From Mesomycoplasma flocculare ATCC 27399 (GTDB taxonomy: Bacteria > Bacillota_I > Bacilli_A > Mycoplasmatales > Metamycoplasmataceae): a stretch of 64,000 bases of DNA. Every line of letters begins with the position of its first letter. The first letter of the stretch is position 1. Positions 9,120 to 64,000 of the stretch are shown piece after piece. The position numbers and the translations under genes were made by a program. The DNA is taken from positions 124,001 to 188,000 of the forward strand of contig NZ_CP007585.1 in NCBI RefSeq assembly GCF_000815065.1, in the 5' to 3' direction. The notes under the pieces were generated by a model. It saw nothing but the letters and a program-made list of their open reading frames with translations. It was not told the DNA's origin and made no database searches.

Positions 9120-9182
<63 letters not shown>

Positions 9183-9245
9183 TTATTTAAATAATTTTTT
9201 TTATATTTATAAATTTTAATTGAATTGGACAAAATAAATTTGAAA

Positions 9246-9321
9246 TGGTACGCCCTAGAGGATTTGAACCTCTGACCCAATGATTAAAAGTCATTTGCTC
9301 TACCTGCTGAGCTAAGGGCGC
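9246..9321 (-). tRNA. tRNA-Lys (TTT)
   Basis: 76 bases including encoded CCA. Acceptor GCGCCCT/AGGGCGT (G-U at 1:72), D arm TAGCTCAGCAGGTAGAG, anticodon loop CTTTTAA giving anticodon TTT, T arm AGAGGTTCAAATCCTCT. Three bases after tRNA-Leu, so the two are cotranscribed. Confidence 0.95.
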
Positions 9322-9324
9322 ATT

Positions 9325-9410
9325 TGGTGCTCGAAACTGGACTCGAACCAGCACGGGATTACTCCCAAAGGATTTTAAGTCCTTTGTGTCTACCATTCCA
9401 CCACTCGAGC
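9325..9410 (-). tRNA. tRNA-Leu (TAA)
   Basis: 86 bases with a long variable arm (GGGAGTAATCCC) typical of Leu and Ser tRNAs. The anticodon stem-loop GGACTTAAAATCC gives anticodon TAA. T arm GCTGGTTCGAGTCCAGT; CCA is encoded. Confidence 0.95.
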
Positions 9411-9447
9411 TGCTATATGAATTTTTATTTTTTTAAAAGCATAAAAA

Positions 9448-9453
9448 ATTATA
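9448..9453 (-). promoter_or_regulatory. -10 box for the tRNA-Leu/tRNA-Lys pair
   Basis: TATAAT preceded by TGG on the minus strand (extended -10), about 38 bases before the mature 5' end of tRNA-Leu. Confidence 0.55.
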
Positions 9454-9632
9454 CCATAAATAAAAAACCAGAAGCAATTTTTAATTTTAAAAGTTTTAAT
9501 TTTTCCAAATAACTTCTGCATACATTTTAACAAAAATTTACGAAAATTTTTTAAGTTTAGGAAAAAATTAGTAAATTTGAGTTTGTTTTACTATTTTTTA
9601 TTAAATAATTACAAAATTTTTAAATTAGTTAA

Positions 9633-10874
9633 ATGGGAAAAACGATCGGCAAAGCAAAATTTTGTATCATTTTAAAGGCAGTTTTTTTCTTCTCCTTTTT
9701 TTTGTTGGTTAGTTGTTTTCAAATTGACCTTAATATGAATTCTAATTATAATAAAGCAAAAAATTCTGTGACATCAGTAAATAAAAAATCTTTTGTTTTT
9801 CAATCGGTTATGACAGGGCTCCCGAAAAGCCAGAAAAAACCAGCAACAAAATTTGTTGGGATGTTAACATATGAAGAAATTGAAAATTTAAAAGTGGGTC
9901 AAATAAATGAAGAAGAATATTTTGGTTTTGAAGAAGTTTTGGTAAAATTTTTTAACACCCTCGATGCTGAAGTTGAATTTAAGAAAAAAGAACAACTATT
10001 TATGAATTTACGAAGAAAAATTGAACTTGTAAATTCAAAAATTAATCTTGGAATCAATGAAGATAAAGAATACATAAGTCAAAAAAAATCGGAAATTAAA
10101 ATAAAACAACCAGTTTTTGAAGATGAAAGCGATAGATCTTTTTATAAAGAACAAATAGAATTATTCGAATCAGACAAAGATTTAAAAAAATTTTTAGAAA
10201 AAAAGAATAAATATCTTTTTATTGAAGAAAATTTTATAAAAGAGCAAAAACAGTGAAATCCTGTAATTAAATTAATTTTTCAATTAAATATGGCGCGTTT
10301 TCATTTAGATTTTATTGAAATTACCCAACAAATAACAAAAAATATAATAATTGCGATCATTGACTATGTTATAAATCTGGAAGCAACCAAAAAAACGGAA
10401 CAAAAACTAACAAGCGAAATTAATAACCTTTCAGAGCAAAAAAGTAAAATTGGGTTAGAAATAAAAAAAGAAAAAGAAAACATACAACTAAAATTGCAAG
10501 AAAAAGACAAATTAAATGAGGAAACTTATAAAAAAATTGAAAAAATTAGTCAAAAAATTGTGGAAAAAAAAGTGAGTCTTGAAGAATTAAAGCAAAAAAA
10601 TTCACAAATTCTTAGATTAGATGTGAAAAAAATCATTGATTTTTTGGCAAGTTTTTTTGATCCTATTTTGCATTATTCAATAAAAAGCGACTATGTTTTT
10701 CAAAACGAAATTAATCTTAGAGTTAACAACCAACTTGCTTTTAGCAAATTCTTCGAATTTTTTACAAAAAATTTAAAGAAAAAACTAAAGAAATATAATC
10801 TTGAATCGCCGTTTTCTATTATGGGTGAAAAAAAACGAATAATTATTGAAAAATATTTTATTCCAATAATTTAA
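9633..10874 (+). CDS. Coiled-coil lipoprotein, hypothetical
   Basis: 413 residues in code 4; TGA at 10254 is Trp. An N-terminal basic-hydrophobic signal ends in a lipobox (FLLVSC, Cys at about residue 28), predicting a diacylglyceryl-anchored surface protein. The middle (about residues 240-330) is a Lys/Glu-rich coiled coil (TEQKLTSEINNLSEQKSKIG onward). The C-terminal part contains FLASFFDPILHYSIKSDYVF. No enzymatic motif seen. The ribosome site is weak. It is followed 76 bases downstream by a separately promoted amino-acid permease. Family not recognised; mycoplasma surface lipoproteins of this kind are often species-specific. Confidence 0.75.
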
Positions 10875-10909
10875 ATTATCCTTTAATTTATAGCATTTTT
10901 TTAAAAATG

Positions 10910-10918
10910 TGATACAAT
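10910..10918 (+). promoter_or_regulatory. Extended -10 of the permease promoter
   Basis: TGA-TACAAT, 33 bases before the permease ATG; a start near 10925 is predicted. Confidence 0.5.
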
Positions 10919-10950
10919 TAAACCGCTAATTTTGCTTTAAGGGAAATGAG

Positions 10951-12525
10951 ATGGAACAAGCATTTAACAAAAACAAAAGGGCCGAGAAAATTACTTTTTT
11001 TGGTGCGCTTTTGATTGTGCTTGGCGCAAGTATTGGAGCTGGAATTTTTTTTAAATCAAAATCAGTTTTGGAAAATTCTGGTTATAATCTTGCGCTTGCT
11101 ATCGGAAATTGAATCATTGCTTGTTTTTCAATCGTGGCAATGGCAATTGCACTTGTTGAAATTTCATCAACAACTAAAAAGTCAAATTTATCAATTATTA
11201 TTTGAAATAAAGTCTTTAATTCAGAGTCTTTTTTTCAAATTTCTAAAAATTTTATAATTTATCTTTATCTTCCGTTTACCTATTTTGTATTACCAGTTTA
11301 TTTTATGCAAATTTTGCAGGATTCAATTGCGGCATTTCGGCTTGAATCAACCAGCGAATGAAATATAAGTTCTGATTGAATAATTGTTCTTGCAGCCTCA
11401 ATTTTAATTACAATTTATTTTTTTGTTATTGGTTTGAATACAAAAATTGCTGAATTTCATAACAAAATTTTTCTAATTGCAAAATTTTTACCAATTTTAG
11501 TAACAATAATTGTCGGTTTTGTGTTATTTTTTCAAGGTGGTTCAAATAAATTATCTAATAATATAACTTTTTTACCATTAGAAAAAATCAAAACTAAAGG
11601 AGCTTCAATTTCTTCTAGTTTGCCAGGTGTTGGAGTTTTGGTTTCAATGGCAGGGATTTTCTTTTCATATGAAGGGTTTTTTACTGCCGCAGGTTTGCAA
11701 ACAGAAATGAAAAATCCAAAAAAAACTCCGATTGCAATTTTGGTTGGTATCGGAATTACAACTATAATTTACCTTTTTATTGCGATTGCAACTTCAATTG
11801 TTGGCGACGGATCGATTTCATCTTTTATTCAAATTGCAAAAAACGAACTAAATTGATCAGGCCTAACAATTAAATTAATTCTTGGGACAACTTTTTTACT
11901 AATCGGAATTAGTTTGCTAGGAATTATAAATATTTTTACTTTATGAGGCCCAAGAGCTTTAGAAGAATTAATTACAAGAAATGAGTTTTCTCTTTTAAAA
12001 AAGTGAAAAAATTTCACAAATTTAAACAAACCGATAGTTTCGACTATTTTTTTAAGTATATTTTCGATTATTTGTCTAGTTATTTTTACTTTAATTGGAG
12101 TTTTCGCCTTTGATGATCAAGGTTATGGAAATTATGGGCAAAAACTAAATAATTTATATTCCTTTGCCGATATTACGGGAAATTGGGCTGCCTTAATTAG
12201 TTTTTTACTGATTGCGGCAGCAATTTATGGGTGTATTCGCAACCGTAAAACTCAGAAAATTCCTGTTCAAAAGCAAAAATATTTTCTCTTTTTTGCTTAT
12301 ATTTCTGTAATTTTTATTAGTATAGTATTAATTTTTGCACTTTTTACACCAGTTATTGATTTAATTTTAATTTCTTTATATAAACCGCAAATTTATGATT
12401 TTGACCAAATCTTAAAAACCAGAATAACAAAGGTGGTTGTACTTTTATTATTTATTTTAGTTCCTAGTTTTCCGTTAATTTGTTGCTGAGCGCAAAAAAA
12501 ATTAAGAATATTCCTAAAAAAATAA
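10951..12525 (+). CDS. Amino-acid permease, APC superfamily
   Basis: 524 residues with about 12 predicted membrane helices. The first helix carries the APC signature GASIGAGIFFKSKSVLENSG (residues about 27-46), and a later segment GIFFSYEGFFTAAGLQTEMKNPKK resembles the TM6-TM7 region of APC transporters. At least ten TGA codons are Trp, so it looks fragmented in the standard code. Imports an amino acid by cation symport or exchange; the substrate cannot be read from sequence. Ribosome site AAGGGA. apt starts 26 bases after its stop, so the two probably share a transcript. Confidence 0.85.
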
Positions 12526-15592: not shown

Positions 15593-16006
15593 AAGTTAAC
15601 AAAATATCTTAATTATAACATAAAAAGTTTTAATTAGTACTAAATTAAACTTATTTTTTGCGTTCCAAATTCAAATTATTGAAATTTTATCAAATAAATT
15701 TGCCAAATTTTTAATTTATTAATAAAAAAGTAAAATTTAGCAAATTTAGACTCAAAATTAGCACTTTTCCAATCGCTAAATTCTAATTTTGTTAAAAAAA
15801 CCCGCCAAAAACTACATAAAATTTATTTATTTTAATTTTGTGATATAATAACCAAGCTTTATAGAATTTAATTTATTTGCTTATTTAATATAAATATCGA
15901 AACAGAAAATAATCTATTTTGTTATTTTAGCAGCCAAAATAGGTCGTTTTTGTTCTTTTCAGCAGCGGTAAAATTTAAAATCAAAACGAAAATACGAGCG
16001 AAAATA
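15593..16006. other. Intergenic region, about 410 bases
   Basis: Very AT-rich, no credible gene. Holds a -10 box TATAAT at 15844-15849 on the plus strand, the likely promoter of the large surface protein, leaving a leader of about 150 bases. The leader contains two short direct repeats (TTTTGTTATTTTAGCAG / TTTTTGTTCTTTTCAGCAG around 15918-15965). Confidence 0.5.
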
Positions 16007-19000
16007 ATGATAAAAAAAAGAAAAATTATATTATTAATTAGCACAATTTCGGCCATTTTAGCGACTTCCTTTGTCGGAATTATAATTTTGAGGGCAAAAA
16101 GTTCAAATTATGAAAAATTTTATAATTTTGAATATAAATATGATAAAAACGGGGATATTTTGCTAAATTTTAACCTTGATAAGAATTTTGCAAGCAAAAT
16201 CGCAAAAGCTAAATTTTTAAACAAAAATTTAGACTCCGAATTTGTTTCCTTTCAGGTTGATAAATCCGGAAATCTGGCAATAAATCACCCTTTTAATCTC
16301 GATGATTCTTTTAAATTAGTTGCAATTGAAATTCAGAAAAGATCCATTTTCAAAACCAGCTATGATAAAGCCCCAATTTTTAAATCAGTTAGCTGGGATA
16401 GCCAGGCGGCAAAATTACAGTTTAACAAAAATCTTACCGCAAATCAGGAGGTTTTTCTTGTTCTAAAAAATGAGGACGGATTTCAAATTGAAAAAAAAGT
16501 GGCAATTGATACTTTAGGTCAAAGTTCAAAATTAACTTCCAAAACGCTAAATTTAGACCAAAAACTTGCTCTGCGCGGCATTTATTTTATTGATCAAAAA
16601 ACTAAGGCAAACCAGCCAATTAATTTAAATGATCTTTTTGTTGAATTTGACAGCCAAAAAGCAGCAAAAAACCCTTTAGAAAATCAAGAAAAATCAGAAA
16701 TTTTAACTCCCATCAAAGATACAACCATTATAAAAAATAGCGAAAAAGTCGAAAAAAAATTTTCAATAATTAAAGACGTTGAACTAAGCGAAAATGGGGT
16801 TAATATCCATTTTAATTTCATCGATCCGGAATTGATAAGTGCGAATTTGGTGCTAACAATTAATTCAGAAGATGGCCATACTAAATTAACATCAAAATAT
16901 GGATATTTTGATTTTGATAGACAATTATATCATTTTAGTTTCGCGGAAATTCCTGGAAATAATAAATATTTTTTGTCAAATATTTATTATTATGATGCAA
17001 AAAATAAGCTAAATGAGATCAGATTTCAAAACAGCATTGAAAATTTTTCCTTTATAAAATATTTTGAGCCTGTTAAATTGAGCAAAATTCAATTGCTAAA
17101 AAGTGATTTTATCGACCAAGTTTTTGCAAATCTGGAATTAGAAGATGAAAATGAACTTTTAAAACAAGGCGATCAAATTAAAGTTTTTGCAGACAATGAG
17201 GGAAAAAACATCGAATCAATCGGGGAAATTGTGGAAAAAACGGGCAAAATTCTTCTAAATTTCCATTTTCATGTTTTACCGAATAAAAAAATTAATATTA
17301 AAAAGTTAGAGCCTTTGAAAATTAAGAAAAAATTATGGTTTAAAAATGCAAACGGCTCTGAATTTCACAAAAAGATCAAAAAACCCGAACAATTTTTTCT
17401 TGAGAACAAAATTGAATTTAAAAATCTTGAACAAACTAGTCTAAATTCATTAAAAATCGATCTAATTTCTGAAAATATTAGTCTTGAAAATGCCCAAATT
17501 AGTGTTAATTTTAATGAAAAAAGTGATATTTCTGGTAAAATTATAGCTACAAATTATCAAAAATTTAATCCGAAATTAATTTTTGATAATATAAATCTTG
17601 AAAAAAATAAAAAATATTTGATTAACAAAGTTAACTTGCGACAAAAAGGTCAAAATATTTCCATCAATTTTAGCGATAATTTCATTTTTGATACCACAGT
17701 TTTAACACTAAAAGAGCTTAAATTTAAGGAATTTTCGGAAAATAAATTAGTTGTTAGTGCAAAAATCCTCAACAACGATAGCAAAAATTTAACTTTAGTT
17801 CTAAAAAATAATAGTAAAACTTTTAAATCAACAGCAAGCAAAATTGAAAAAGAAAGTGTTGAATTTAGCTTTGAAAATGTAAATTCAAATCGAATTTTTA
17901 CTTTTGATAAAATCGAAACCGATAAAAGATGAATCGCCAGTCAAAAATTCGAAATCGGCGTTGAACCAAAAGGGATAGAGGTTGGAAAAACTAACAACAA
18001 TTTTACTAACTTAACGATCAATTCGGCAAATTTTAGCGCTGAACTAAAAAGTTTAGATAATGTTTTTAGTGAAAATCAAATAGTTAGTGCAATTTTAGCT
18101 GGCGATAATAATTTAGAAAAAACAAAATTTCAAGGCCGAATTAAAAAAGACAACGACAAATGGGTGTTAAATTTTAATTTTAATGGTCTAAAAAGTGATA
18201 AAAAATACAAAATTCAGCAACTATTTTTTAATCATAAACCCGAAAAAGCTTGAAAAAATTATAATTTAAACAATCAAGAAGGTGTTTTTTATGATTCATC
18301 AGTTAATAAAAAAGATCAATTTGAGTTTAGTACTATTAAAAATACCGTCGGATTAACTATTTTTGATGAAACTTCATCGCCGTTTGATAAAAAACGAACA
18401 TTAAAAATTCAACTTACAGATGAGAATAAATTTAATAAAAAACAAGCCAAACTAATATTTCGTGAATCAGGAAATTCTGATAATAAAGAAATAGAATCAG
18501 ATTTTTTTAGGGAAACCGAAAAAAAGGATTATAAAGCAGAGGTAAGTCTTGAAAAAACAAATACTTTTTATGAATTAGTAGCAATAAAAACTGCTGAAAA
18601 TGAAAAAATAACTGTTGATAAATCTCAAAGCAGCAAAATTATTGCAAGCGATATTTTTAAAGAAACATTACCACTTTTTTCAAGTAATCACCCAAATTCT
18701 ACCGAGGTAATAATTCCTTTTGACGACAAAATAGGAAAAATTAAGGAAAATGATAAAGCAAAAGTTACTTATAAAAATAGTAAAAATGAAACTTTTGAAA
18801 GCGAGGCAACAGTTGAAAATTCAAACCAAGAAAATAAAACAAGCAACGAAAATGACAAGAATTTGCAATATTTAAAAGCAAAGTTTCAAGATTTAAATGT
18901 AAATGAAAAGTATCAGATTGAAACTATCGAATTTGGCACAGAAACAAAAACAAACTATTACAATAACAAAGAAAATCAGGAAAAATTCAGCTTTGAAAAT

Positions 19001-20137
19001 GATATTAATTTAGTGGATAACTTAAAAATGGACGAAAAAAATAAATTTATTAATCTGGAAGCTTCGGCCAATTTTGATTTAAGCAAAACCGCACTATTTT
19101 TTGATCTACAATTAAAAAGTCAAGACAATCAAGGTGTTTTTATCAAACTTTATAAAGCCAAAGCTGAAAAAATAAACCAAACTGAGACAAATACAAATGA
19201 TCAAAAAGGTAAATTCCGCTTTAAATTCAGTTTTGATTTCTTAAAATCGGAAATTCAAAAAATCAAAACTGGAAATTATACACTACAATCATTTTCTTGA
19301 AAACAGAATCCCAAAAAGGAAACTTTGGAGATCAAAAATATAAATTCCACAATAAAATTAACAAGTTTTGATGATATAGGAAAAGAAATTGAGAAAAAAT
19401 GGGTCGATTTTGCTAAACAAAACAGGTGGAAATTTCCAAGTGAAATTTCAGAGACAGAAATTCAAAATGCCCTGACAAAAACAGATTCAGCCCTTTTTTC
19501 TGATCTAAAAATCATAAATGGTAATGAAAAAAATTTGTCTAGTTATTTACAACCACGCTACGAACTTAATTATTTAGGTTGCACTTTTTCTGGATTTTTG
19601 AAAAAAGAAAATTTTAATTTTGTTAATTATAACATCCAAAAAAATCCAAAAGAAATTTGGGGCTTTGGCGATACAAAATATTCAACCTATCTTTCATATA
19701 AATATCGGCCAGAAGAGGTTTTTGGCCATGGAAATACCTACTGATATTTAGATAATGACCGAAGCGATAAAGGCAGTGAATTTAAAATGATCCCGCAGAA
19801 TGTTTCGCAGTATCCTCATGGCTATTATGTTGAAGCTTTCCGTTTGCGCTTTTTTGACAACAGCGACTATACTCCCGTAAACAAAAATAATTGGTGAAAA
19901 GATTATATCAGTGTCTCATATGAGGATAACGAGGGGAAAACTCATAAATTGGAAAAGGACAGTATCGGCCAACCTTATCAAATTGTGGGAATAAATAGCC
20001 AACTCTCGCTAACAATTAACATCAAAAAGCGACTTAAAAAGATAATAATTAATTTTAACAACAAAATGGGTAATAAATATATTGCAATCGGACGAGTAAA
20101 CTTTGTCGGATTTGCGAATAAAAATAAGGATTTTTAA
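16007..20137 (+). CDS. Large repeat-built surface protein, hypothetical (1,376 residues)
   Basis: One gene in code 4; TGA at 17930, 18251, 19298 and 19742 are Trp. The start at 16007 puts a basic head and one membrane segment (MIKKRKIILLISTISAILAT) at the N-terminus, suiting an anchored or exported protein with an extracellular remainder. The body is predicted beta-rich and shows a recurring strand motif of the type K-Y-x-I-x-x-[IV]-x-[FY] (NKYFLSNIYY, KKYLINKVNL, KKYKIQQLFF, EKYQIETIEF) every 90-130 residues, suggesting about ten Ig-like units. The C-terminal 280 residues differ (KKWVDFAKQNRWKFPSEISE) and may be a functional cap. Weak ribosome site. I do not recognise the family with certainty; adhesin-like is inference. 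Confidence 0.8.
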
Positions 20138-20229
20138 ATAATTATAGCAAAAATTATTGAATTATTTAGATTTTTTTGACTTTTCTAGATTTAAGAACCC
20201 CAAAATAACTATTCTGGAAAAAGGGAAAA

Positions 20230-21378
20230 TTACATTAAAATATCATTGTTTTTTCTATATTTTACCAAGTTATAAATCGAAACTGTAGGAATAAAGAAGT
20301 CTAAAATATATAAAAATCAGTATTTTGGCTTTTTGATAAAAATAGCCAAATTTGCTAAATAACAAGGGCAAATATAGAAAAAATAAATTGCAAGAGTTGT
20401 TGCAAACAGAAGAAAAAAACTCACCAAAAAACCAATATTGTGAAGAATTTCCAATCTTGTAATTGCTTGCAATAATGTAATTGTAAAAACTATTAGAAAA
20501 AGGCTATGAAAAACAAGCTTTTTAACTAAAAATTTATAAAATAGTCAATTCATTTTATCTTTGCTTGCCAAATATGTGGTGCTATTTTTTTCAAAATCAG
20601 TATTTTTAATTTCTTTTTCAATTTTAAATATGTTTTTTCAAGCTTTTAAATACAAGAAAGGCAAGAAAAAAATATAACTTACGGGTGTTCAATTAGCTTG
20701 CTCTCTGTCTTTAATTTGCCTGTATATTTTAAGAGAATTAGCTCCTAATAAAAAAAACGGTATTAAAAGAAAAAATATCCCATTTCCTAATATAATCAAA
20801 TAAATATAACTAAAATTATTCTTAATATTTTCATCTAATTTAGCCTCAAAAAAAGCAAAAGTAAAAGATACTAGAAAACCAAGGACTACAAAAATTCAGA
20901 CTAAAGCAATCAAATCCTTGAAAAAATTAATGATTTTTCACTTTTGAATTAATTGTTTGGTAATTAAAAAGTCATTGATTGATTTCTTTTTTTCCAATTT
21001 TTTTGTTATTAAAATGATTGAAGTAATTAAAGGAATTAGCCCAAAACCAATTGAATATTGTTTGATATCTAACCCAGATTGTCTAAAAATTTCATCATCT
21101 CGTAGTTTTCAAGCAAAGCGAATGCGCAAAAATAAAGAAAGGAGAGTTAAAAAGCCAAAAGCTCCGAGCAAAAGCTCAATTATTTTTTTTGCAAGAAAAG
21201 GTAAATCAAGATTATTAAAAAAATTTGCCTCCCCCAGTTTCTTAAATGAAAGTGCAATGATTAAGATGATGGCAAGGCATATTGTTTTACAAATTGAAAA
21301 CCAGAAAATAACTTGAAAAACTAAAGAATTGTAATCATTAAAAAAATTTTTTTTCAATGATTTGTAAAATTTTTTCAT
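20230..21378 (-). CDS. Multi-pass membrane protein, copy 1 of a duplicated family
   Basis: 382 residues, open throughout in code 4 (several TGA Trp codons, e.g. in RIRFAWKLRDD and QLIQKWKII). About eight hydrophobic segments; no motif I can name. Segments KLRDDEIFRQSGLDIKQYSI and IKKPKYWFLYILDFFIPTVS recur almost unchanged in the decayed copy at 22824-23982, so the two are paralogues. Likely an integral membrane protein of unknown function. Upstream lies a truncated copy of the secreted gene that also precedes the second paralogue, showing that both genes were duplicated together. Confidence 0.7.
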
Positions 21379-21454
21379 AAATCTAGACCTGTTATGTTTT
21401 TTAAAAAGAATAAAGTTTAATTTTTAACAATTTATTTAGTTTTTAATTGATAGA

Positions 21455-21676
21455 ATCTGGATTATCATGTTTGTTTTCAAAAATGCTATGAATTACGTAG
21501 TTTTTTAATTTTTCAGTATTTGAAAATTCGCCTTTTTAATTCAGATTTTAGCAGCGATTTGCTTTTGCTAAATCGGAGTTAATAGATGTCAATAGCTGAC
21601 TAACAAAGGGTTCTAAAAGTATTAACGAGTAACTTAAAACAGTAAACTTTTTGGATTTTATGACTGAAAATTTCAT
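21455..21676 (-). pseudogene. Truncated copy of the secreted protein gene at 24040-24885
   Basis: The ATG at 21676, signal-peptide start (MKFSVIKSKKFTV) and -10 box (TATAAT at 21726-21721) match the intact gene at 24885 almost base for base. The frame then stops after about 41 codons (TAA at about 21551). Homology to the first 65-70 codons continues in broken frames to about 21455 and then ends, so the last three quarters of the gene are missing. Confidence 0.75.
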
Positions 21677-21820
21677 TTTAGTTTTAGCTTTTTTAAATAA
21701 TCTGAAATTATTTGACTTTAATTATAACATTAAAAATAAAATTTCGAAAGTAATTATGAAATTTATTAGCAAAAAAGAAGCAAATAATCAAAAAACAATA
21801 AAAAATAAAATGAAAAAAAG
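21654..21820. repeat. Duplicated promoter/5' segment (partner 24862-25020)
   Basis: About 155 bases are almost identical to 24862-25016, differing at only a few positions. The segment covers the first codons, promoter and upstream region of the secreted gene. Such identity in non-coding DNA points to a recent duplication or gene conversion. Confidence 0.85.
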
Positions 21821-21867
21821 TATATTAATCTAATTTTTAAAGATAAAAAATCAAAAAAGGTACAAAA

Positions 21868-22623
21868 ATGGAGAATTTTAAAAAAATTACAAGAATGGTG
21901 CGCGCAGTTCTTCTTTTCAACTTTTCCATTTTAGTTTCTTCTTGTTCTAATGTTATAATTTCTAAATCCGATTTACTAAAAATCGAAAGCAATGTATTTA
22001 ATTTTTCGGTAAGCAAAGGCAAACAAAATTTATCAAGATTTACTGCGACTTTGTTGAAGAAGACGAAAGAAAAATTGATTTTTGTTACCACGCACCATTC
22101 ACTAAATTTTGTAAAGCTAAAAATTAATGAACAAAATTTTAATATTCATTTAGAACAATTTAGTAAAATTAATTTCGAAATCCAAATAAAGTCAAAATTT
22201 AAAATTGAATACGAAAATAAGGAGAAGGATATTTTATTATTTTCATTAAATACTAGTAAATTATTGCCTTTTTTAACTACTAATTTTATTGATTTCGGGG
22301 TTTTGGAGGATTTTACCAGTTCGAAAAATAGTTTATTTAGTTTAGGTTTTGTTACACTTTTAAAAAGCAATTTTTTTCCTTATGCATCAAGATTATTATT
22401 TTATACAGATGATAAAATTCCAGAATTAGAAGAAGATAATGTATTGATACAAAATATTGATTACAGTCAAGGTTCATCAGGTTCGCCTTTATTTTTTAGA
22501 AATAAATTAGTTGGATTATACAGAGGTAAAAAAATAAAAAGTAAAAAATTAATCCCATTTTTTCGATTGATAGATTCAGAAATCAAAGAGAAAATTTTGT
22601 TATTAATTTCAAAAAGTAATTAA
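21868..22623 (+). CDS. Trypsin-like serine protease lipoprotein (putative)
   Basis: 251 residues. Signal with lipobox ILVSSC (Cys26) predicts a surface lipoprotein. The rest has the layout of a chymotrypsin-fold protease: His in FVTTHHSLN (His76 or 77, cf. TAAHC), Asp in KDILLFSL (Asp121), and Ser in QGSSGSPLFFRNKLVGLYRG (Ser204 at the GDSGSP position). The glycine-rich nucleophile loop followed by a strand F-x-x-x-L-V-G is typical. It is shorter than most mycoplasma surface proteases. The plus-strand gene lies between the two minus-strand copies of the duplicated module. Ribosome site AAAAGG. Fold inferred from motifs; substrate unknown. Confidence 0.65.
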   Translation: MENFKKITRMVRAVLLFNFSILVSSCSNVIISKSDLLKIESNVFNFSVSKGKQNLSRFTATLLKKTKEKLIFVTTHHSLNFVKLKINEQNFNIHLEQFSKINFEIQIKSKFKIEYENKEKDILLFSLNTSKLLPFLTTNFIDFGVLEDFTSSKNSLFSLGFVTLLKSNFFPYASRLLFYTDDKIPELEEDNVLIQNIDYSQGSSGSPLFFRNKLVGLYRGKKIKSKKLIPFFRLIDSEIKEKILLLISKSN

Positions 22624-22638
22624 CAAAAAATGATCACA

Positions 22639-22680
22639 AAATTAAGAAAGTTACGTAATTTATAGCGTTTTTCAATTTTA
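22639..22680 (+). terminator. Imperfect terminator-like hairpin with the CGTAATTTATAG loop
   Basis: Downstream of the protease-like lipoprotein, AAAATT...AATTTT arms with internal mismatches flank ACGTAATTTATAGCG. The loop sequence is the same, in the same orientation to transcription, as in the hairpins at 25114-25154 and 63962-64000. Confidence 0.4.
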
Positions 22681-22823
22681 TGTTTTAAAAATCTAAGCAA
22701 TCCATAAATGTTTACAGTGATATGGGTTTTGCCTTGTTGTCCGATGCAAAGATTAAATATAAATTAGTTTTAAATCTATCTTTTTTGCCTAATTAGTAAT
22801 AAAAACAATTAAAAAATCAAAAT

Positions 22824-23982
22824 TTACGTCAAAATAGTTTTGTTTTTTCTATATTTTATCAAATTATAAATTGAAACTGTAGGAATAAAAAAGTCTAAAA
22901 TATACAAAAATCAGTGTTTTGGTTTTTTAACAAAATTGGCAAAATTTGCTAAATAACAAGGGCAAATAAAGAAAAAATAAAGTGAAGTTGAGGACGCGAG
23001 TGGAAGAAGTGAAATTATAACTAGAACTTTATTATAAAAAATTTTATCTTCTAAAATTATTAGTGGCAATGTGATTATAAAAAACGTAAGAAAAATAAAG
23101 TGAAAAATATTTTTTGTTATTGTAAATTTATAAAATAATCAATTAATCTTATTTTGGTCAATTAAATTATCATCATAGTCAATCTTCTTTTCCTCTATAT
23201 TTTTAATCTCTTTTTCTGCATTAAATTTGTTTTTTCAAGTTTTTAAATATAAAAAAGGCAAGAAAAATGCATTACTATTATTACCTCAAGGCCAATTTGT
23301 TTTTAGTCTGTTTTTTATCTGTTTGTATATTTTAAGCGAATAAGCAAAGAGCAAAACAAAAGGTATTAAAAGAAAAAATATTCCAAATTGTATAACTAAA
23401 ACAACAATACTCAGTGGTTCTGCGTTGATATTTTTGTCCGAAAAACCATTAAAAAAAATCAAACCATAAGTTATTTTATTAGCTAAAATCAAAAAAAGTG
23501 ATAAGAAAAATAATACATCTCGGGCAAAATTAATAATTTTTCACTTAAGAATTAATTGCTTAGTAATTAAAAAGTCATTAATTGATATTTTGGCTGATGA
23601 AGTTTCTATAATTTATAATTAATATAATTGAAGTAATCAAAGGGATAAGGGCAAAACCAATTGAATATCATTTAATATTTAATCCCGATTGCTTAAATGT
23701 TTCATCATCTCGTAGTTTTCAAGCAAAGGAAATCCGCAAAACTAACGAGAAAAGAAACAAAAAAATTAAAATAAACGATAATGCCTTCATTGTTATTTTA
23801 ATTGAAAAAGGTATATTTGTACTTGTTTTTCATAAAAGAAGGCTAATAAAACCTTTATCAAATAATTTTGATATGATAATATAAGCTAAAAATAATATTG
23901 TTTTCAAAATTGACAGCAAGAAAACAATTCTAAATTTCTTGAAATTTCCGCTAGTAAAAAATTTTTGTATCACACTTGTCAT
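22824..23982 (-). pseudogene. Frameshifted second copy of the multi-pass membrane protein
   Basis: Starts at ATG 23982 (MTSVIQKFF...) and runs 134 codons to a TAA at 23578-23580. Homology to copy 1 (20230-21378) then continues in another frame (SINDFLITKQLILKWKII) to a TAA at 22824. The interval corresponding to 17 codons in copy 1 is 58 bases here, so the frame is shifted by one. Nothing else is missing and codon use is intact, so the break is recent; alternatively two separate polypeptides are made. No homopolymer marks the shift site. Confidence 0.7.
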
Positions 23983-24039
23983 AACAATATACAGTAATTA
24001 TAGGATTTTTTAATAATTATAATTTAACTTAAGAAAACA

Positions 24040-24885
24040 TTAATTAACATTATTTATTCCTCAATATAAATTGTAGTAATAGATATAATTTGCCCACGCT
24101 TTAACTTTTGCAAAACTAATTGCTTCGCTAATTCCACTAATTAGTTCTTGCACTAATTTATTTAAGCTTGCAAAAAGATAGTTGTTTGCAATGTCTGTTA
24201 AAAATTTAATAAGCAAAGATCTTGGATCAGAATTTTCAACAAAATTACTTACAGAATTAAGGGCGGCCTCATCAATTGCTTCTTCAATAATATTTTCCTT
24301 CTCATAAACATACATAGAGCGTAATAATTTAACCATTATAGTAAAACTTCGAACTGCAGCAACATCATATTTGCCAGCAAGAGTGTTACTTATAATTTTC
24401 GAAATCTCTACAAAAGTCGGCAAAAGGTTGAAAAAACTCCCTATTTGCTTTAGTTCGAAATCAAAAATATCTAATGCGCCATAGGCGACATATCAAAAAG
24501 CCATTGGAAATCAATGGTATCAAGCCTCTTCAAGAACTTCTTTATTTCTAAAATGCTTTTTTGTAAATAAAATCAAATTTCTGGCAGCTTTTTCAAGCTC
24601 GCTTTGCGAAAAATCTTTTATTTTATATAATTTTAACAGCTTACTTAGTTCTGATTTAATTGAACTTAAATTATCTTGTTTGTTTTCAAAAATATATTGA
24701 ATTACTGAGTTTTTTAACTTTTCAGTATTTGAAAGTTCGCTTTTTTGAATTCTGATTTCATGAGCGATTTGTTTTTGCTGAACCGGAGTTATAGATGTAA
24801 TCAATAGCGGGCTAATGAGTGTTGTAAACATTAGCGAATAGCTAAAAACAGTAAATTTTTTGGATTTTATGACTGAAAATTTCAT
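24040..24885 (-). CDS. Secreted helical protein, hypothetical
   Basis: 281 residues in code 4 (Trp from TGA at 24520, 24511, 24493, 24061). The N-terminal signal (KKFTVFSYSLMFTTLISPLL) has no lipobox Cys, so a secreted or N-terminally anchored protein is predicted. The remainder is alpha-helical, with acidic/Lys-rich segments (NTEKLKNSVIQYIFENKQDN) and a Trp/aromatic patch (EEAWYHWFPMAFWYVAYGAL). Promoter TATAAT at 24935-24930 preceded by TG-T. It lies 57 bases upstream of the decayed membrane-protein copy and is probably cotranscribed with it. Function unknown; a truncated twin sits at 21455-21676. Confidence 0.7.
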
Positions 24886-25020
24886 TTTAGTTTTAGCTTT
24901 TTTAAATAATCTGAAATTATTTGACTTTAATTATAACATTAAAAATAAAATTTCGAAAGTAATTATTAAATTTATTAGCAAAAAAGAAGCAAATAATCAA
25001 AAAACAATAAAAAATTAAAT
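24862..25020. repeat. Duplicated promoter/5' segment (partner 21654-21820)
   Basis: Second copy of the near-identical segment covering the start and promoter of the secreted gene; divergence begins abruptly after about 25016. Confidence 0.85.
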
Positions 25021-63586: not shown

Positions 63587-64000
63587 ATTATTGTACCGTT
63601 TTATGCTTTTTTGTATGTATGTAAAATTTGTTGCACCTCCAAGTTAGATACAATTATACCTTTTTTTGCTTGGATTATTAGTTTTTTGCTTGCTGCTTTG
63701 CTTAGTCAAGACAAGATTATTACATATTCAATTTATTGCTTGATATTTGAAGTGATTTTTACTTTTGAAACTTGAGACCTTTCAAACGAACCAATTCAAG
63801 ATTATTAGCCTTTTTCAAATTAATTTTTATGATTATAACGCTAATAAACGCTAATAGAAATTAGCGTATTTATTTTTGCTAGGCAAAGCGAGGATTTTTG
63901 AAAAATAAAATAAAACTTATATAATTATTCATATTTTGATTAGCTAGATTTTAAAAACAAAAAATTAAAAAATACTATAAATTACGGTATTTTTTAATTT
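63587..64000. other. Intergenic region at the right edge
   Basis: No credible gene. On the minus strand TATAAT at 63658-63653 could drive the giant hydrolase (leader about 60 bases, containing GGAGGTG far upstream of the ATG). An inverted repeat AACGCTAATA/TTAGCGTATT lies near 63838-63870. A perfect terminator-like hairpin ends the window. Confidence 0.45.
63962..64000 (-). terminator. Terminator-like hairpin with the conserved loop
   Basis: Perfect 14-bp stem (63962-63975 with 63987-64000), loop reading CGTAATTTATA on the minus strand, as in the ktrB terminator. The orientation predicts that a minus-strand gene ends just beyond the right edge. Confidence 0.55.

What the first reader, a model, noticed from the sequence alone, without database searches (positions are those of the whole stretch)
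20160..25020. Duplicated two-gene module with complementary decay around a protease-like lipoprotein
The block contains two copies of [secreted protein - multi-pass membrane protein] on the minus strand. In copy 1 (20230-21676) the membrane gene is intact and the secreted gene is cut to about 41 codons. In copy 2 (22824-24885) the secreted gene is intact and the membrane gene is frameshifted. Together they keep exactly one functional member of each, a textbook pattern of subfunctional loss after duplication, implying that both proteins are still needed together. About 155 bases of promoter/5' DNA are almost identical, so the event or a conversion is recent. This is my best candidate for an undescribed system.
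Basis: partly seen in the sequence, partly recalled or inferred. Interest (0 to 1): 0.65.

Follow-up and report, generated by a model that had tools for sequence, protein, structure and literature searches.

The report
Mobile, decaying three-gene mycoplasma surface module
In the pig commensal Mycoplasma flocculare a block of a surface protease gene, a secreted-protein gene and a membrane-protein gene has been copied and is half broken; related mycoplasmas carry the block at different chromosomal places, in part through recent gene transfer, and often keep only the membrane gene.

Summary
In M. flocculare Ms42T (778,866 bp) copy 1 has an intact 382-aa membrane gene (M1) behind a truncated secreted gene (S1). 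Copy 2 has an intact 281-aa secreted gene (S2) and a frameshifted membrane gene (M2). A 155-bp 5' block is 153/155 identical.

The unit has three genes: the "interposed" lipoprotein is a trypsin-like protease (P) with an invariant His-Asp-Ser triad. P, S and M lie together in M. hyopneumoniae J (all intact), in an M. ovipneumoniae-like genome, and in another genus.

Leaving one intact copy of each gene is also the commoner outcome (4 of 6) when two of four genes break.

The unexpected result is mobility. M copies of M. hyopneumoniae, the M. ovipneumoniae group and G002 differ at dS 0.06-0.15, against 1.1-1.7 for YchF, with sharp similarity boundaries and different chromosomal neighbours.

Best reading: a horizontally moving accessory module that decays towards M alone. 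An effector-plus-self-protection role fits best but is unproven. S and M match no known family.

The parts
20230..21378 (-). M1, intact 382-aa multi-pass membrane protein (copy 1)
   Evidence: open under code 4; 7 hydrophobic segments; homologues in 10 other genomes
21398..21676 (-). S1, truncated relict of the secreted gene (42-aa ORF 21548-21676, broken homology beyond)
21643..21797 (-). 5' block of copy 1: presumed promoter and first codons of S1, probably also serving M1
   Evidence: 153/155 identical to 24852-25006; TATAAT at 21726; promoter role inferred
21868..22623 (+). P, intact 251-aa trypsin-like serine protease lipoprotein
   Evidence: Pfam PF00949 27.2 bits, cut-off 20; H77, D121, S204 invariant in five relatives; linked to S and M elsewhere
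22824..23982 (-). M2, frameshifted membrane gene (copy 2), reading frames 22824-23555 and 23578-23982
24040..24885 (-). S2, intact 281-aa secreted or signal-anchored helical protein
   Evidence: relatives at 56, 52 and 26% identity
24852..25006 (-). 5' block of copy 2: presumed promoter and first codons of S2
63945..64000 (+). left end of a third small relict (P and S 3' ends), continuing outside the window to C1:188192

Best explanation
Shown: this is a three-gene accessory module, P (surface trypsin-like lipoprotease, transcribed divergently) with S (exported helical protein) followed by M (polytopic membrane protein). It was duplicated in tandem and is decaying; in M. flocculare one intact copy of each gene is left, spread over two half-broken units. 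Elsewhere it has moved between species and sites, and it often decays until only M is left. Inferred: S is an exported, membrane-active protein, matured or activated at the surface by P, and M in the producer's membrane protects the producer from S or handles it. In such an effector-plus-self-protection arrangement M stays useful after S and P are gone. M1 is probably still expressed from the S1 promoter that survives in front of it.
For: Gene order M-S-P with P divergent is kept in M. hyopneumoniae J (all intact) and G013, and as relicts in G007; P, S and M occur together in another genus. Transfer: M dS 0.06-0.15 against YchF dS 1.1-1.7 between M. hyopneumoniae, the M. ovipneumoniae group and G002; about 90% DNA identity ending at the module edges; different neighbours in each lineage, and the flocculare and hyopneumoniae sites hold no module in the relatives checked. 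Asymmetry: six genomes hold intact M with no S and only fragments of P, while every intact S (flocculare, hyopneumoniae J, G013, G105) has a multi-pass membrane gene directly downstream or, in flocculare, in the neighbouring copy, and G006, which has no M, has a stop in S. S has a conserved hydrophobic, aromatic stretch AWYHWFPMAFWY and is otherwise predicted all-helical.
Against: No toxicity, protection, cleavage or expression has been measured. The structure models of S and M are too poor to use (mean pLDDT 48 and 46). The M-only genomes are about two lineages. G105 has S and P with two membrane genes that do not match the M profile. Elevated M dN/dS in places (about 1 for the ovipneumoniae pair) can mean relaxed constraint. 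The flocculare copy itself shows core-like divergence (dS 0.96 against 1.06), so recent transfer is shown for the other lineages, not for it.
Confidence: 0.4

Rival explanations
1. A host-interaction module: P cleaves host or own surface proteins, S binds the substrate, and M imports products or signals. Duplications, transfers and losses reflect adaptation to different hosts.
For: P is a surface lipoprotein with an intact protease triad; surface serine proteases of M. hyopneumoniae have been linked to processing of surface molecules (PMC6642558); species with the module live in different hosts.
Against: P is broken or lost in most genomes that keep M; M matches no transporter family.
Confidence: 0.3
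2. One reading: S and M form an obligate pair kept by selection after duplication, by complementary loss.
For: One intact copy of each remains in M. flocculare; S is never seen intact without a linked multi-pass membrane gene.
Against: Intact M without S in six genomes; complementary loss is expected in 4 of 6 random two-gene losses; P is part of the unit.
Confidence: 0.1
3. M has an independent role and S and P are passengers in decay; the linkage is a by-product of common transfer.
For: M outlives S and P; 10 of 12 M copies in S-less genomes are open; M dN/dS is 0.31-0.65 among G008-G010.
Against: P and S keep their triad, motifs and linkage over two genera; flocculare-hyopneumoniae dN/dS is 0.26 for both S and P, lower than the 0.46 for M.
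Confidence: 0.2

Closest known systems
Bacteriocin gene clusters with a dedicated multi-pass membrane immunity protein (general knowledge)
   Same: exported helical protein with a hydrophobic stretch, linked protease and polytopic membrane gene; patchy spread; membrane gene kept where the effector gene is lost
   Different: no bacteriocin family match, no dedicated ABC exporter at the intact loci, S is large (about 280 aa), no activity shown
MIB-MIP antibody-cleaving system of mycoplasmas
   Same: linked surface serine protease and exported protein in mycoplasmas
   Different: P (251 aa) has no match to the MIP peptidase family in Pfam at E up to 1; S is about 280 aa and not similar to a known family; M has no counterpart there that I know of
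Staphylococcal Spl proteases
   Same: weak profile match over the region of the catalytic serine and the C terminus (E 0.05)
   Different: P is a lipoprotein and the match is below significance; Spl are free secreted enzymes (general knowledge)

Membership tests
Trypsin-like (chymotrypsin-fold) serine peptidases, for P | His-Asp-Ser triad with GxSGSP around the serine | tested here: met
   H77, D121, S204 invariant in five sequences from two genera
Trypsin-like (chymotrypsin-fold) serine peptidases, for P | family profile above the curated cut-off | tested here: met
   PF00949 27.2 bits against 20 for P; PF00089 33.8 against 20.6 for the G105 relative
Trypsin-like (chymotrypsin-fold) serine peptidases, for P | proteolytic activity | not testable with these tools
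   needs an assay
Bacteriocin or effector-immunity system | effector inhibits sensitive cells and the immunity gene protects | not testable with these tools
   needs an assay
Bacteriocin or effector-immunity system | sequence match to a known effector or immunity family | tested here: not met
   no significant match for S or M in Pfam, NCBIfam, PADLOC or PDB sequences
Bacteriocin or effector-immunity system | immunity gene may occur alone, effector gene not | tested here: inconclusive
   direction as expected but few independent lineages, and G105 has S without a recognisable M
MIB-MIP system | protease of the MIP (DUF31) family | tested here: not met
   P hits only Peptidase_S7
Horizontally transferred module | divergence far below the core genome, sharp edges, different sites | tested here: met
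   one core gene (ychF) with trkH and flanks as yardstick; met for hyopneumoniae, G002 and the ovipneumoniae group, not for the flocculare copy (dS 0.96)

The most novel reading that the evidence does not exclude
P-S-M is an undescribed antagonism system between wall-less bacteria: S a membrane-active effector activated by the surface protease P, M its immunity protein, spreading between mycoplasmas of different hosts and leaving immunity-only remnants.
Probability: 0.2. Interest if true: 0.7.

Novelty: new variant of a known kind. Interest (0 to 1): 0.42.

Why it matters
Here a small module shows near-identical copies in M. hyopneumoniae, the M. ovipneumoniae group and a further species whose core genes are far apart, and two of its three protein families are described in no library searched. 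If M protects against S, it would give a handle on competition between mycoplasmas that share the airway, and the gene states found in nature (all three genes, M only, none) make the idea directly testable. It also corrects a tempting inference: complementary loss in one genome does not show that two genes are needed together.

Tried and rejected
Strain-level check in M. flocculare: no second strain is in the collections; the draft of ATCC 27716 (described in PMC3610235) could not be fetched. Structure prediction of S (single sequence) and M (5 rows) gave low confidence, so no fold search was made. The two small membrane ORFs beside P in G006 and behind S in G105 were tested as split M genes and do not match the M profile. 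Plasmid search with M and phage search with S found nothing. A simple empty site in G002 was considered: the 1395-aa gene and trkH are neighbours there, but the former is inverted, so only absence of the block is claimed. A TATAAT in the 5' block was seen, but the promoter scan of the region was no richer than shuffles.

Full report
What is there. The window is C1:124001-188000 of a 778,866-bp genome, the size of M. flocculare Ms42T (PMC4357767). Read from the right, S2 (24885-24040, intact) and M2 (23982-22824, two frames) lie on the minus strand, then P on the plus strand (21868-22623, intact), then S1 (relict from 21676) and M1 (21378-20230, intact) on the minus strand.

Age of the copies. 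The 5' block is 153/155 identical. S1/S2 including this block are 87% over 391 bp, but the M genes only 71%, with M1/M2 dS about 0.74. One duplication event does not easily give both values; the 5' end was copied or converted later (inference). M1 and M2 are sisters in the M tree (99/99, long branches), so the pair appears particular to this lineage. The ovipneumoniae group and G002 have another, older M pair (about 37% and 45% identity to M1), and M. ovipneumoniae SC01 has two closer copies.

The protease belongs to the unit. P has a lipobox and invariant H77, D121 and S204 and passes Pfam cut-offs. In M. hyopneumoniae J the order M-S-P is intact, with an extra P relict. In G013 it is M, S, broken P, M, P relict. 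G007 keeps relicts of all three side by side. In another genus, G095 has P, M and broken copies of S and M, and G105 has P and S followed by two other membrane genes. In 135 genomes of the family, P is found in 13, M in 11 and S in 6 plus one marginal match (G138); all but that one lie within the P set. Over 320 genomes of the order, S and M are found in no further genus.

Is the pair needed together? G002, G005, G008, G009, G010 and G014 hold intact M and no S at profile level, with P reduced to fragments. These genomes are about two lineages, so it is a few events, not six. In the other direction, every intact S has a linked multi-pass membrane gene, and G006, which has no M, has a stop in S; this is compatible with S depending on M. 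Chance is enough for the complementary pattern in flocculare: 4 of the 6 possible two-gene losses leave one of each.

Mobility. Between M. hyopneumoniae, the ovipneumoniae group and G002, M is 90-94% identical in DNA with dS 0.06-0.15, while YchF is 74-79% with dS 1.1-1.7. The similarity stops at the module edges. The neighbours differ: ychF-rpsR-ssb-rpsF in hyopneumoniae, a cytosine methylase plus GmrSD-type gene in the ovipneumoniae group, ABC transporters in G002, trkH and a 1395-aa gene in flocculare. The sequence beyond rpsF in hyopneumoniae has no counterpart at that place in four relatives, and the flocculare block none beside trkH in three. An IS3-type transposase relict lies between S and M in G013. 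The flocculare copy is about as diverged from hyopneumoniae as its core genes (dS 0.96 against 1.06), so recent transfer is shown for the other lineages only. How the module moves is not known.

How it may work. Shown: protease triad, lipobox, a hydrophobic N terminus in S, 7-8 hydrophobic segments in M, gene order. Inferred: S acts at membranes, P matures it, M protects or handles it. Keeping M after loss of S and P is what a self-protection gene would show, but relaxed decay and an independent role of M remain possible; the rivals together weigh as much as the leading reading.

Known or new. P is a trypsin-family member. S and M match nothing significant in Pfam, NCBIfam, PADLOC or PDB sequences. 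Eight serine proteases are mentioned for M. hyopneumoniae F7.2C (PMC6642558), but I could not tell whether P is one of them.

Noticed in passing
window 15950-20137 and G000:C1:188266-192429 (L083): A 1395-aa gene without a Pfam family has a second copy (68% identical) in the same genome; each copy lies beside module sequence (M1 at one, a P/S relict at the other).
   Followed up: partly
L041:8074-8285 (G013): Relict of an IS3-type transposase between S and M, about 96% identical to an open transposase gene in G008 (L037:2581-3759).
   Followed up: partly
L037:9644-13899, L041:12047-16305 (G008, G013): Next to the module in the M. ovipneumoniae group lie a C5 cytosine methylase and a 1015-aa protein with GmrSD domains, a likely restriction-modification pair.
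   Followed up: no
L036:3-6939 (G006) and L034:177-4538 (G002): In both, module remains lie near two large ABC-ATPase plus FtsX-type fusion genes.
   Followed up: no
L141:10041-11277 (G105): Two overlapping multi-pass membrane genes (267 and 147 aa) directly behind intact S, unlike M by profile; possible functional stand-ins.
   Followed up: partly
L037:2420-2498, G005:C1:433541-433606: Copies of the last codons of M and the DNA behind them lie elsewhere in the genome, perhaps further relicts.
   Followed up: no
L142:8071-8817 (G095): A second P copy in another place has Tyr where the lipobox Cys would be, beside a subtilisin-like ORF (9178-11007, by eye).
   Followed up: no
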